NCBI GenBank assembly: GCA_001275005.1
Contig: JWZX01002242.1
Span: forward strand, 1-36,726
Origin: Chrysochromulina tobinii
Taxonomy: Eukaryota; Haptophyta; Prymnesiales; Chrysochromulinaceae
Direction of reading: 5' to 3'
DNA length: 36,726 nucleotides
Shown here: positions 26,954 to 32,932 of the stretch, one piece after another
How positions within the stretch are numbered: position 1 is the stretch's first letter
How the letters are laid out: the number at the start of each line of letters is the position of its first letter
Translations under genes and position numbers: made by a program
Notes under the pieces: generated by a model
Told to the model about the DNA's origin: nothing
Seen by the model: only the letters and a program-made list of their open reading frames with translations
Databases searched by the model: none

Positions 26954-29900
26954 TTATACCCCTTGCAGCTTGGTGCCCGCCTCGAGCGCATTGAGACGCG
27001 AGGCCACGTGTTCCATCCAAGCGGCCAGAGCCGCGCCGTCCAGCTCACGTAACGGTCGCAGCTCGGAGGTGAGGTCGAGATCGCGTAACGGTCGCAGCTC
27101 GGAGGTGAGGTCGAGTGCGCTGCGAGCGAGCGCGCCGGTGAACGAGCTGGCAGGTTGCTGCTGCAGTGGCGGCGGCGACGGCGCCGGGCTAGGGGCTGTG
27201 CTGGGGGCTGTCTCGATGGCAACCTCTGCCAGCCACGCCCTCTCCTCCGCCGCCTCCGCTGTATCTAACGCAGGCGGGGCGCCGTGTTGGGCCGGCGCGG
27301 CGGGCGGCGGCGAGGGGGGCGGCATGCGCTGACGTGGCATGCCATTCACTTCGAGCTGCCGAAGGTCCGCCTCTGTAGGCGGCCGAATGCTGAGCAAGTC
27401 TGTGGAGCGGACCGCCGCCCGAAGCGCGCGCCCCGCACTCCCGGGGAGCCATCGTGACCAGACCGCTGCCGACCTCGCCGCCCTCGCCGCCTCCGCCGCG
27501 TACGCCGCCGCATGCGCCGCCGCCGCCGTCGCACTCTCGGCCGCTCCCGCCGCGGCCGCCGCCGCGGTGGCAGCGGCCTCGGCCGCAGCCGTTGGCGAGC
27601 CAACACTCTCGAGAGAGTCGCGTAGCACCATCACCAGGGCTGCGCGGCGATCATACGCGTCCGGCGGCGACGGGGGGTCCGGCGCGGCGCCGCCGTACGC
27701 GGTGCCCGCCGCCACGTGCACCGCCTCGCCCTCATCGCAGTCGCGGGCCGTCGGGGGGGGCGGGAGGGCCGGGAGCGTTCGCCCGCCGTCGCCCGCGCAC
27801 GAAGGTCCGCCTCCCGCCGCCGCGGCCGCGGCCGCCTCGACCTCATCGGCCGCGTCCTCCATTGGACGCACCGCGTTGGCCGCCAGCGCAGCCCCGACCA
27901 ACCTCTCGAGCAGCTCGAGGGGGGGCTGGCGGCGCACGTTGATGGCGACCTTGGAGGCCGCGAGCAGGAGGAAGCTGAGCATGCGCTGGCGGGCGCCGTC
28001 CGAGGCGGCGGCGCCGTACCGGGCGTTGGCGGGGAGCAGGGAGGTACCGCTGATCGGCGCCGTGTCGAGCACGAGTACGCTTCCACAGCTGCGGTTCAGA
28101 TGGGCGGGGGGGGCATCCGAGAGCCACATCCAGATGCCCTCGCCGCCGACGCCCTCTCCGGCAGACCGTATGGCGAAGCCTACGGCGTGGGCACTGCTGG
28201 CAACGGCATGGGCACTGCGGCCACCGGCCGTGCCGCTCACAACTGCCGATGGTGCGGGTGCAGGTGCCTCAGGTGAGGCGAGGGGCCGAAGGACAGACAC
28301 GATTGCATTGGCGAGGGTGGACGTTCCTTCACCCGCCGGCCCAGCCACGCCGACGACGCACATGCTGCCGGGCGCGCCGCGGATCGCCGCGAGCGCGCCA
28401 GGGTGAAGGCTGAGCCGGCCTTGACTATCAACGGTCACAAGGGGGAGGGGGGGGCGGTCCGCGAGAGGCACTGGCTGGCTGAGGGTGGTGGCGGCGCCGG
28501 AGCGGGCGCCAAAGGGGGCGAGCGGGCCGCCGCCAACGCCGAGGGCGGCGAGCAACGCGAGGCCGCCGAGGGCAATCCCAACGAGGGCGATTCCCCACAG
28601 CAGCCTCGGCGCCGTACCGGGCGTCCCCTCGGCTGCTGTGGGGACTCGGCGTCGTACTGGGCGCGCGCCGGCGTCGGTGAGGGAGGCGTTCTCGAGTAGG
28701 ATGGGCAAGCCGGCCGCCACACGCCCCGCGCCCACGCCGCTACGCACGCGGTAGAGGGCTCGCGGCTCCGCATGACCGGCAGCCACATCTGCCGGTTGAA
28801 TGACCTTCGTTGGGTCGGTCGGGTCCACGAACATGAAGCGCTGCGTGCGCGCGCCCGGCACGGCGCTGGACATGGGGACGGCGCATACGTTGCGCTTGCC
28901 GCGCTCGAAGGCGGACGCATAGATCGAGCGCGGCGCATCGTCGGCGGAGGCGTAGGACGCGGCGTCGTCGTCGTTCGCGCCCTTGGCGCTCGCGTGCCCG
29001 GCGCCGTCGTGGGCGGCCGGAGGGCGTGTGGATCGTTGCATGAGAGCCGCACCCATCCCGGCCGCAAAGTACGCACACGCCACATTATCCGCCGGAGAGC
29101 CCCAGCAGACGACCGAGGGGGCTCCCATCTGATGCAGGAGGTCGCCCAGCCGCCCCTCGGACGCGTCCTTGCCGCCGGTGCAGCATGCATTAAGTACGAT
29201 GCACTCGAGGCATCCCCCAAATAAGGGAAGGTGCGGCTGCACCTCGAGAGCGATCGCCACCTGATGAGGGATGCAATCATCCACAATCAGACGTAATCAG
29301 ACGCAATCAGGCGGTCAATCGTAGAGCTCGAGAGCGATCGCCACCGGATCAAACGTCTCAAGCACGCCATCAGAGGCGCTGAAGCCGAGGGTACGGCGCC
29401 CATCGCCCTCGCCCAGTCGAGCGTCGCCGTGGCCCGCGAACCAAAGCAGGTGCGGCTGCACGGCGTACAGGGCGTGCCTCAAGTCCTCAAACGAGCCGCC
29501 CCGCATGGGCGGTGGCGAGGTGCGCAGCAGACCGGCCGTTTGCAGCCCTCGCACCTCGAGCGTGCAGTCGAGTGGCGCACACACGGGGCTGCAGAACATG
29601 AGGAGCGCCCGCTTCCCATTCGGGAGCACGCACACATTCAGAGGGCCATGGCCCATCGGCCCAACGGCCACGTTCACAGTGTGCCCCACGTTCACAGGCC
29701 CGTTCAGAGGGCCATGGCCCATCGGCCCAACGGCCGGCAGCATGGGCGTCGGCATGCCGGGCGCCGTGCCGGGCGCGCAGAGCATCGAACGCTCGCGATG
29801 GCGCTCGCAATTCTGGGCGGGCGCGTTCCACAGCCCGAAGACCCAAGCGCACACGCGACCCGCGGCCTCAGCGAGGGCAGACGAGGAGGTGGTGGAGGTG

Positions 29901-30788
29901 GTGGTGGTGGTGGTGGCGGCGAGGGTGCCTGCGGGCGCTTCCTCGGCGGCAGTGGCAGGGAGCGGTGCTGAAGCCGCGACGATCTCGGCGATCTCGGCGG
30001 GGTCGCGTGCGGTGGCGCCGCACGTCTGCTGCAAATGTGCGAGCACGCGCTCGCACCGCTTCGCGACGATCCGCAAGCAGCGCCGGCGCTCGTCGTACTT
30101 TCGGCGCTCGGCCTCCGCCCGCGCCGCATCGGGCGCCGAGCGATGGACTCGCTGCAGCTGGGCGGGCGGCTCGGCTGTCGCAGCGACGAGGGCCTGGACT
30201 CGCTCGAGCATCCGGTCGACTGTTGCGAGCTCGGCGAGCATGCGATCGTGCCTGGCGCGCTTGCGTGAGCGAGGGACGGAGCCACCGCTAGGCAACGGCC
30301 CGATGACATCGCCTGCCTCCGCCGAGGACGTCGAGGATGCCGATGAGGATCGGCCGAGGACCCCGGGCGGACCCTCGATGCTCTCGAGGATGCCACTCAG
30401 ATCGTCCTCGTCCTCGTCGCCGCCGCTGAGCTGGTCGCTCAGCTGTCGCACGAGCGTACGAACCTGCCCGAGCATCTCGGGGGCTGCCATCGCCTCGACA
30501 TCCACGACATCGGCGGCTGCCTCCTCGAGCTCCGCGATCGTCCAGTCCGCCATCGGGTCGCCTTCGCCCATCGTGGAATGTGGAAGATCGCCATCCCGCC
30601 GCCCCGGCTCAGCCGCTCCCGCCTCCTCGGTCTTCCACATACGAGCGGTGCCCGGGACGGCGCGCCCAGCCGCTCCCGCCCCCTCGGTCTTGGATGATTG
30701 CGACGCCCAGTCCGCCCGGGACGACGCCCAGTTCGCCCCATCGCCCGGTCCGCCGTGCCCGAGGTCCTCGCCACTGCCCCTACCGCCG

Positions 30789-30829
<41 letters not shown>

Positions 30830-32214
30830 GACGACGACAACGACGCCGACGCCGCCATCGCCCCCCCCGAGGCCCAGCTCATCGTACGCGAGCAGCTCGT
30901 GCAGCCGTCGCAGGTCCACCTCGCGCGTCGCCGATGCCGCTCTCATGCGCTCGTTGGGGCGATCGGCGCCATGGATGCCGTGGGGGGTGGCGCGTAGGGG
31001 GGTGAGTGGATATCCCAGGAGGCCCTGTGGGGTAAGGAACCCCTGTGGGGAAAGGAGCCCCTGTGGGGAAAGGAGCCCCTCAGCCGAGAGGACGCGATGC
31101 ACGAGGCGAGTGCTCTCAAGCAGAAGCACCTCCGCCGCATCGGCCCCCTCGGAGCCACGAGACGCGTCAGTCGCGTCCACAGTGCCCTCATCAGCGACAC
31201 TCTCCGCTTCCGATGACCACCAGCCACCGCACATGCCCGCATACGAGCCGCCGCCGCCGCCGCCGCCGCTCCAGCCGCCGCCGAAGGGAGTCAGCACGCA
31301 ATCCGTGGCGGGTACGGCGGGGGTGCTCCCGCCGCCGTACCCGCCGCTCCCGCCGCCGTACCCGCCGCTTGAGCTGAGGCTGCCGTCGCTTGACGACGCG
31401 CTTGAGGGCTGGCGCGACGCATGGCGCTCGGGATGCACCTGTGGCGGCAGCAGCCAGCCGCCGCCGCCGCCGCCACCGCCGCCACCGCCGCCGCCGGTAA
31501 CCAGGCCGCCGAAGCCATCGAAGCCACCAAAGCTATGGAAGGCGCCGGTGCGATCGTCGTCGAGCGGCGCAGGGCAGCGCTCGTCCATCGAGGCCGCCGA
31601 GCTCGAGTGCGCGGGTGAGTCGGTGAGTGAGCCCGTCGTCGCGTCGTCGATCGCGTCAGCGGACCCGTACGAGTCGGTACGGCCGCAACGGCCGACGGCA
31701 CCGCGGGTCGAGAGAGCGCGCGCAGCGGCCGGCGGCTGGAGAAGAGACGCACGCTTCTCGTCGAAGAGACGCACGCATGTTTCGCATCGGTTGCCAAAGC
31801 AGAAGCCCTCCTCCGCCACCTTCTTGGCAAAGCGCTTGCAGTCGGTCGGCACCTCCCACGCGGCAGTGTCCACCTTTGTCTCGCTGAAGCCGACGCGGCT
31901 GAGCAGCTCGTACGGCGGCAGGGCGACGCCGTGCAGGATGGCGAGGTGGCGGCACCGGCCGACGGAAATATGCTGCGAAACGTGGCAGGGGCACACGAAA
32001 CGGTGTGAGCCGCGCGCGAGAGCTGGACCTGGTGCTTGCTTGCCATGCTGCGCGGCCTGAGAGCTTTTCTGTCGACTGCCGCGGCGCACACCTTGTTCTT
32101 CTTATGCGGATTAAGGATGTTGCTGCCGAGCTTGGCATGGAGGATGCGCTCGTAGGCGTTGCGGCACCGATTCGAATCGCCTTTCTCGAAGGAGTGCGCC
32201 TCCAAATCCTCCAT
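26954..32214 (-). CDS. CHAT protease - transmembrane - GBP-like multidomain protein
   Basis: At least two exons: one ending at 29345, then 29260-26954, joined in phase across an 84-nt intron, about 1,700 aa. From the N-terminus: a Cys/His-rich module (HRFVCPCHVSQHI, CRHLAILHG, FCFGNRCETC); long Gly/Ser-rich linkers; a basic/acidic coiled coil (about 30280-30010); and a CHAT domain with His in WFAGHGDA (codon 29431-29429) and Cys in VLNACCTGG (codon 29185-29183), split by the intron. Next come one membrane helix (about 28604-28530) and a domain resembling the guanylate-binding-protein GTPase: GRLSLHPGALAAI, GPAGEGTST, GIWMW, VLVLDTAP and MVLRD. The P-loop Lys and DxxG Gly are missing. An Ala-rich tail ends with duplicated LDLTSELRPLR. 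The Cys/His frame has no ATG before that module, so an upstream exon is needed; ATG 32214 (MEDLEAHSFEKG) is a candidate, its splice unresolved. A membrane-anchored cysteine protease in stress or immune signalling is inferred. Confidence 0.75.
27041..27117. repeat. Tandem duplication encoding LDLTSELRPLR twice
   Basis: Two near-identical copies of about 36 bp (CGTAACGGTCGCAGCTCGG...) in tandem. On the minus strand they encode DLTSELRPLRDL and DLTSELRPLREL near the C-terminus of the CHAT/GBP-like protein. Confidence 0.85.
29261..29344 (-). other. 84-nt intron splitting the CHAT catalytic dyad, with 18-nt terminal repeat
   Basis: Donor GATCCG|GTGGCG and acceptor CATCAG|GTGGCG. The intron opens with GTGGCGATCGCTCTCGAG, and the next exon opens with the same 18 nt. 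The middle holds three copies of a CTGATTRCGT-like decamer. Removal joins ETFDP to VAIALEVQPHLPLFGGCLEC in phase 0 and restores a continuous CHAT domain. Reading through meets an in-frame TGA at 29317-29315, which would end the protein before the catalytic Cys. Confidence 0.85.
29637..29735. repeat. 33-bp direct repeat encoding GPMGHGPLN
   Basis: Identical 33-bp copies at 29637-29669 and 29703-29735, each containing GGCCATGGCCCATCGGCC. They lie in the linker just before the CHAT domain and encode two GPMGHGPLN units. The two copies start 66 bp apart, keeping the reading frame. Confidence 0.9.
30785..30826. repeat. CCG trinucleotide run encoding poly-Gly
   Basis: An almost pure GCC/CCG run coding for a glycine tract on the minus strand, in the disordered linker of the CHAT/GBP-like protein. 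A similar run lies at about 31460-31495. Both are likely to vary in length. Confidence 0.8.
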
Positions 32215-32592: not shown

Positions 32593-32932
32593 TCACGGCT
32601 GCAGCCAATAGCCATTAGCCATTAGCCATTAGCCAATAGCCAACAGCCATTAGCCAATAGACAGTAGCCAGTAGCCATGAGCCAATAGCCAATAGCCATT
32701 AGCCAATAGCCAACAGCCATTAGCCAATAGCCAGTAGCCAGTAGCCATGAGCCATTAGCCAATAGCCATTAGCCAATAGCCAACAGCCATTAGCTGATAG
32801 CCAGTAGCCAGTAGCCATGAGCCAATAGCCATTAGCCATTAGCCAATAGCCAACAGCCATTAGCTAATAGCCAGTAGCCAGTAGCCATGAGCCAATAGCC
32901 ATTAGCCCATCACGGCTGCAGCCAATAGCCAT
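32593..32932. repeat. Heptamer minisatellite flanked by 23-bp direct repeats
   Basis: About 45 degenerate heptamers of the form TAGCCAN (TAGCCAT, TAGCCAA, TAGCCAG, CAGCCAT, GAGCCAA) run from about 32605 to 32905. Blocks of about 60-70 bp recur as a higher-order repeat. Identical 23-bp sequences, containing CACGGCTGCAGCCAATAGCC, sit at 32593-32615 and 32910-32932. The right copy includes the stop codon and last codons (GYWLQP) of the minus-strand gene beside it, so the left copy is a duplicate of that gene's 3' end. Confidence 0.9.

What the first reader, a model, noticed from the sequence alone, without database searches (positions are those of the whole stretch)
26954..32214. A CHAT protease joined to a membrane helix and a GBP-like domain in one algal protein
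Splicing one 84-nt intron gives a single protein with an N-terminal Cys/His-rich module, a coiled coil, a CHAT domain with both His (FAGHGD) and Cys (LNACC), a membrane helix, and a C-terminal part matching the guanylate-binding-protein layout (LSLHPGALAAI, P-loop-like GPAGEGTST, GIWMW, VLDT, VLRD). Caspase-like proteases and GBPs are separate players in animal cell-autonomous immunity, and CHAT proteases drive bacterial abortive defence. I know of no described protein that fuses the two. A membrane-anchored death or stress sensor is inference.
Basis: partly seen in the sequence, partly recalled or inferred. Interest (0 to 1): 0.9.

Follow-up and report, generated by a model that had tools for sequence, protein, structure and literature searches.

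The report
CHAT protease with GBP-like domain
A gene from an unnamed eukaryote thought to be an alga joins a caspase-type (CHAT) protease through one membrane helix to a decayed relative of guanylate-binding proteins, a combination for which we found no description and which looks like a membrane receptor that switches on a protease.

The parts
26954..32214 (-). gene: CHAT protease - membrane helix - GBP-like protein, three exons, 1685 aa
   Evidence: spliced frame without internal stop; homologues P0002-P0010
32092..32214 (-). exon 1 (aa 1-41, MEDLEAHSFEKGDSNR..HKKNK)
   Evidence: aligns with the N-terminal module of P0002, P0004, P0006, P0007, P0008 and P0010
31973..32091 (-). intron 1, 119 nt, GT..AG
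   Evidence: inferred from P0002 and relatives, which run HKKNK-HIS(V/I)GRC without insertion
31754..31972 (-). second part of the N-terminal module (HISVGRC..DCKRFAKKVAEEGFC..CETC), aa 42-114; no Pfam family, no convincing PDB match
28709..29626 (-). CHAT domain (aa 824-1101), interrupted by intron 2
29429..29431 (-). predicted catalytic His889 (WFAGHGD)
   Evidence: conserved in 10 of 10 sequences, window and P0002-P0010
29261..29344 (-). intron 2, 84 nt, GT..AG; introner-like: 18-nt direct repeat, body found dispersed in the genome
   Evidence: absent from P0002; 59 matches listed, itself included; end motif 175 exact copies, itself included
26954..29260 (-). exon 3 (aa 918 to stop): second half of CHAT, helix, GBP-like domain, C-terminal tail
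29183..29185 (-). predicted catalytic Cys943 (LNACC)
   Evidence: conserved in 10 of 10 sequences
28535..28591 (-). single hydrophobic helix (aa 1141-1159)
   Evidence: one hydropathy peak in 9 of 9 GBP-bearing members, none in P0010; basic residues on its N-side
27335..28459 (-). GBP-like segment as modelled (aa 1185-1559)
28316..28342 (-). degenerate P-loop GPAGEGTST (Lys replaced by Thr)
   Evidence: Lys present in P0003, P0004, P0005, P0006, P0009
28358..28360 (-). Cys1218, six residues before the P-loop, invariant
   Evidence: 9 of 9
28085..28087 (-). Cys1309, seven residues before the G3 Asp, invariant; possible disulfide partner of Cys1218
   Evidence: 9 of 9; bond not measured
27617..27625 (-). 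G4-type LRD motif
   Evidence: (L/I)RD in 9 of 9

Best explanation
Shown by sequence: one conserved protein with an N-terminal module of unknown kind, a variable region, a CHAT (caspase/separase-type) domain with an intact His/Cys pair, one hydrophobic helix and a C-terminal GBP-like domain. Inferred mechanism: a single-pass membrane receptor-protease, N-terminus inside. The GBP-like domain lies on the outer or lumenal side, tied by a disulfide between its first and third core strands, and has kept the GBP fold as a binding or oligomerising surface while GTP hydrolysis has decayed. Ligand binding or clustering outside brings the cytosolic CHAT domains together, activates them by proximity, and they cut cytosolic targets. 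The likeliest setting, by analogy with the CHAT-NB-ARC-LRR and CHAT-NACHT-TPR proteins of the same genome and with fungal and bacterial CHAT systems, is response to infection or damage, possibly regulated death. Ligand, activation, substrate and outcome are unknown.
Against: N-glycosylation sequons are not enriched on the presumed outer side (7 seen, 10.0 expected; N-side 8 seen, 17.9 expected). The charge bias of the window copy itself is a tie at 15 residues. Four of nine members keep both Lys and DxxG, odd for a compartment without GTP. The GBP model is of low confidence (pLDDT 53.8, pTM 0.45). The disulfide was not measured; Cys are also invariant on the CHAT side. No gasdermin-family match in this genome, so the best-known CHAT target is not at hand. 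No expression, infection or activity data.
Confidence: 0.45

Rival explanations
1. Cytosolic GTPase-switch protease: the hydrophobic stretch is a one-leaflet or hairpin anchor, both domains face the cytosol, and the GBP-like domain binds nucleotide and polymerises on membranes as GBP1 does, activating CHAT. Members that lost the P-loop lysine work as partners of intact ones.
For: P-loop Lys and DxxG both intact in 4 of 9 members (P0003-P0006), G4 RD in 9 of 9; fold closest to GBP1; true GBPs polymerise and support caspase activation (PMC12091997, PMC6600649, abstract starts in the listing).
Against: The window copy has lost the Lys and the DxxG glycine; G2 Thr is absent in 8 of 9, including the four members with intact Lys and DxxG; charge bias across the helix; invariant Cys pair; no GBP_C helical domain reported by Pfam for the family.
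Confidence: 0.25
2. Ordinary endomembrane regulator: a signal-anchored protease for organelle quality control or regulated cleavage, unrelated to defence.
For: CHAT and caspase-type folds occur in non-immune proteins too (separase and DdvA rows); one gene with the N-terminal module found in this genome, apart from a weak match of E 0.19; the module is very conserved (76% mean column identity), unlike fast-evolving immune sensors.
Against: Three other CHAT frames here carry NLR-type NTPase modules and two of these carry repeats; the region between the N-terminal module and CHAT diverges strongly.
Confidence: 0.22
3. Both catalytic parts are relics and the protein is a membrane scaffold.
For: GBP motifs decayed; some caspase relatives are inactive pseudo-proteases (PMC7889975 and PMC6426788, titles and abstract starts).
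Against: His and Cys are kept in 10 of 10 CHAT domains, against expectation for a relic.
Confidence: 0.06
4. Gene-model artefact: two neighbouring genes wrongly joined.
For: The joins here rest on predicted introns; no RNA reads from this organism were seen.
Against: P0002 is continuous across both joins; P0003-P0009 carry CHAT, helix and GBP-like part in one predicted protein.
Confidence: 0.02

Closest known systems
Fungal CHAT-NLR and CHAT-TPR proteins that activate gasdermin-like proteins (PMC12881547, PMC10197012, PMC9815663; passages seen)
   Same: CHAT protease covalently joined to a sensor module in one eukaryotic protein ('contracted' pathway)
   Different: Sensor there is an NLR NTPase or repeats; here a membrane helix and a GBP-like domain. 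No gasdermin-family match found in this genome
Bacterial SAVED-CHAT filament protease (8tl0)
   Different: Named for a SAVED sensor; no membrane helix or GBP part (from the entry title and recall, not examined)
Guanylate-binding proteins and atlastin/RNF112 (2b8w, 9jju, 3qof)
   Same: closest fold for the C-terminal domain; G4 RD and the WMW-type strand kept
   Different: Window copy lacks P-loop Lys, G2 Thr and DxxG Gly; extra Cys pair; fused to a protease; probably exoplasmic
Zebrafish Gbp4 with a CARD domain (PMC4932187, abstract start) and animal TRADD-N-GBP fusions (PMC8195603, passage seen)
   Same: GBP joined to a death/immune signalling domain in one protein
   Different: Those are adaptor domains, not a protease
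Plant GBPL2 and GBPL1 (PMC12489281, passages seen)
   Same: GBPL2 clade has a signal peptide and membrane helices; GBPL1 lacks the G2 threonine
   Different: No CHAT domain is named in the passages seen

Membership tests
CHAT protease (PF12770) | profile score above curated cut-off | tested here: met
   spliced window segment 31.5 bits against 24; 7 of 10 family sequences above; P0006, P0007, P0010 give no hit
CHAT protease (PF12770) | His and Cys of the catalytic pair | tested here: met
   10 of 10
CHAT protease (PF12770) | caspase/separase-type fold | tested here: met
CHAT protease (PF12770) | proteolytic activity | not testable with these tools
   needs a purified protein
GBP (PF02263) | profile score above curated cut-off | tested here: not met
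   window 18.7 bits against 21.1; of 9 members P0005 (24.4) and P0009 (21.1) reach it; P0002, P0007, P0008 give no hit
GBP (PF02263) | GBP/atlastin-type G-domain fold | tested here: met
GBP (PF02263) | G1 P-loop GxxxxGK(S/T) | tested here: not met
   GPAGEGTST in the window; Lys in 5 of 9 members
GBP (PF02263) | G2 threonine before the GIWMW strand | tested here: not met
   absent in the window; 1 of 9 members (P0008) has Thr there; the 4 GBPs of this genome have it
GBP (PF02263) | G3 DxxG | tested here: not met
   DTAP in the window; DTAG in 5 of 9, P0003-P0007
GBP (PF02263) | G4 RD motif | tested here: met
   9 of 9
GBP (PF02263) | C-terminal helical domain (PF02841) | tested here: inconclusive
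   no Pfam hit, while two true GBPs of the genome give it
CHAT-NLR | NB-ARC/NACHT NTPase plus repeats | tested here: not met
   no such hit in the window frames (E up to 1) or in the typed CHAT and GBP segments (E up to 10); the whole spliced protein was not scanned in one piece

The most novel reading that the evidence does not exclude
A new kind of receptor: an exoplasmic, disulfide-tied pseudo-GTPase derived from guanylate-binding proteins that controls, through one membrane helix, a cytosolic caspase-type protease in a eukaryotic plankton lineage; a one-protein pathway from outside signal to proteolysis, with the GBP fold reused as an ectodomain.
Probability: 0.35. Interest if true: 0.87.

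Novelty: new variant of a known kind. Interest (0 to 1): 0.72.

Why it matters
GBPs and caspases work as separate partners in animal cell-autonomous immunity, and CHAT proteases drive defence in bacteria and fungi. A conserved protein that physically joins the two folds outside animals would show that they can be coupled directly, gives algal virus biology a testable candidate switch for cell death, and, if the topology holds, shows the GBP fold used as an extracellular or lumenal receptor without GTP hydrolysis.

Tried and rejected
Two genes or a frameshift artefact: rejected for the family by continuous relatives. Chance GBP resemblance: rejected by shuffled, reversed, dynamin and NB-ARC controls and by the fold search. 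A PDB phmmer of exon 3 alone gave one chance match, E 0.8; the A2 profile against the PDB gave a designed P-loop protein first (E 0.0039), then ClpC, RNF112 (0.017), GBP2 (0.027) and the CHAT protein 8tl0 (0.043) among unrelated rows. The P0005 full-length model left most of the GBP part under pLDDT 50, and its Foldseek list had no match at E 0.001, though hGBP1 ranked first (E 0.38, prob 0.57). Sequons as support for topology: not supportive. Viral origin: none of three viral-contig scans encoded a relative. Prokaryotic CHAT-GBP: 45 loci, 44 cyanobacterial and one Anaerolinea, all matching only within query residues 205-463, i.e. CHAT; the seeds of that scan were CHAT motifs. Gasdermin PF04598: none in the genome. 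N-terminal module: no Pfam, PDB best E 0.099, taken as chance. PADLOC and NCBIfam: nothing for P0005, only weak P-loop-region matches for P0009. Loss of the P-loop Lys needs at least three changes on the CHAT tree, but three losses and one loss with two regains are equally short (my count on the tree). A paper search for lumenal GBPs led only to the plant GBP review.
Full report
Observation. The two frames lie on the minus strand at 29315-32089 and 26954-29284. Between them an 84-nt GT..AG stretch (29344-29261) begins with an 18-nt sequence, GTGGCGATCGCTCTCGAG, that is repeated exactly just after it. Removing it joins the frames in phase. The start lies in exon 1 at 32214, and a second intron of 119 nt (32091-31973) is needed: homologue P0002 reads HKKNK-HISIGRC without a break, as do P0004, P0006, P0007, P0008 and P0010 in the same region. 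The resulting protein has 1685 aa and no internal stop.

Relatives. Three protein searches of a 5.8-billion-sequence set gave ten entries, P0001 being the window's own exon 3; each search scored only the roughly 8000 candidates sharing most words. P0002 carries an MMETSP name and EukProt source, so the order N-module, CHAT, helix, GBP-like exists as one predicted protein from a transcriptome. Nine sequences (window, P0002-P0009) have CHAT, one hydrophobic helix and the GBP-like part; P0010 has the N-module and CHAT but no recognisable continuation. P0003, P0005 and P0009 lack the N-module, perhaps by incomplete gene calls.

Decayed nucleotide site. P-loop Lys is present in P0003, P0004, P0005, P0006 and P0009, replaced by Thr in the window, P0002 and P0007 and by Ser in P0008. 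DxxG is kept in P0003-P0007 and lost in the window (DTAP), P0002, P0008 and P0009. The G2 Thr that precedes the GIWMW strand in the genome's true GBPs is absent in eight of nine; P0008 has a Thr there but has lost Lys and DxxG. So no member keeps all three, and Lys with DxxG is intact in four of nine. (L/I)RD is kept in all nine.

Topology. No signal-like start is seen by eye in the members with the N-module. Around the helix, K+R counts over nine proteins are 23 before and 3 after (10 residues), 33 and 7 (15), 40 and 10 (20), 51 and 16 (30); the N-side is higher in 9 of 9 at 10 and at 30 residues, with ties for the window and P0005 at 15 and for P0005 at 20. This predicts CHAT in the cytosol and the GBP-like part outside. 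Two Cys in the GBP-like part are invariant (9 of 9), six residues before the P-loop and seven before the G3 Asp; the four canonical GBPs have none there. In a Ras-like sheet these strands are neighbours (established knowledge), so a disulfide is plausible but was not measured. A GBP-like gene on contig C19, whose N-terminus looks like a signal peptide by eye, has Cys at both positions and aligns with the family at score 97.8 (its exons were joined approximately). Against this: sequons are not enriched outside (7 seen, 10.0 expected), Cys are also invariant on the CHAT side, and an exoplasmic domain would not normally meet GTP, which fits decay in some members but not the four with Lys and DxxG.

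Company in the genome. The 53-Mb genome (2253 contigs) has ten PF12770 matches on nine contigs, this intron-split gene not among them. Architectures: C434 CHAT-NB-ARC-LRR_5 (CHAT 30.4 bits and 56.0 with the family profile, but not listed by the Pfam scans), C1782 CHAT-NB-ARC with LRRs in an overlapping frame, C920 CHAT-NACHT/NB-ARC-TPR, C1172 CHAT with an overlapping TIR_2 frame upstream on the same strand, C1336 CHAT with C-terminal hydrophobic stretches seen by eye. On a 29-row tree (15 of the 45 prokaryotic loci used) the family CHATs form one group (100/99), joined with those of C434, C1782, C1172 and C1336 (99/94) apart from the prokaryotic ones and C1673; the own-genome branches are long and the tool warns that long branches meet, so this is a lean, not proof. 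Canonical GBPs are present too (C2040, C986, C2110, C1218).

Mechanism. Fungal CHAT proteases sit in NLR or repeat receptors, and one has been shown to activate a gasdermin (PMC12881547, PMC10197012; passages seen). The simplest analogy is a receptor in which clustering activates CHAT. Here the sensor would be the GBP-like domain across the membrane. No gasdermin-family match was found, so the target is open. Everything after the anatomy is inference.

Literature. Open-access full-text searches for CHAT with GBP or NLR terms returned no paper that, from its listing, describes the fusion: 0 papers; 0; 47 papers; the 20 listed show no 'CHAT'; 1, a fungal review, passages seen; 1343, 12 listed; 25, 12 listed; 48, 8 listed. 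GBPs fused to immune adaptors are known (Gbp4-CARD, abstract start; TRADD-N-GBP, passage). I therefore call it a new variant of a known kind: a CHAT receptor with a new partner.

Noticed in passing
window 29261-29344; loci L089-L120: Introner-like elements: the body of the 84-nt intron recurs (59 matches, itself included) and its end motif TGATTGCRTCCCTCATCAGGT has 175 exact copies genome-wide, none for the backward-read control. In 10 of 30 sites examined the sequence after CATCAG recurs upstream with a score of 15 or more, against 28 of 300 control sites in the same loci; nine of the ten lie 80-111 nt away. This suggests longer target duplications than the 3-9 bp reported for some other introners (PMC9860276, passages seen).
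   Followed up: partly
G000 C434, C1782, C920, C1172 (L082, L084, L086, L085): NLR-like proteins with CHAT: CHAT-NB-ARC-LRR, CHAT-NB-ARC, CHAT-NACHT-TPR-KH, and CHAT overlapping a TIR_2 frame.
   Followed up: partly
L015 (G000 C19:3384-6509): Separate GBP-like gene with a signal-peptide-like start (by eye), the same Cys pair and a P-loop with Lys (GAAQEGKS); no CHAT seen in the locus frames read.
   Followed up: partly
L012 (G000 C1218): GBP (116 bits) with a hydrophobic N-terminus and hydrophobic C-terminal stretches by eye, reminiscent of plant GBPL2 (PMC12489281, passages).
   Followed up: no
L013 (G000 C2024:9477-12644): One frame with a GBP/MMR_HSR1-type GTPase match and a C-terminal Hsp20 domain.
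   Followed up: no
window 31754-32214: N-terminal module FEKGDSNR..HKKNKHISVGRCRH..CKRFAKKVAEEGFC..C..C: 76% mean identity over 7 sequences, no Pfam, one clear copy in the genome plus a weak match of E 0.19 on C2187.
   Followed up: partly
G000 C1629 (L020, L027): Two CHAT matches in one 3051-codon open frame.
   Followed up: no
window 625-25730: Neighbours look ordinary: CBS, peptidase C69, sideroflexin, EF-hand, zf-PARP, aspartyl protease; 4 of the 10 frames scanned gave no family.
   Followed up: no
window 32606-32700: Tandem run of TAGCCATTAGCCAATAGCC-type units beside the gene.
   Followed up: no
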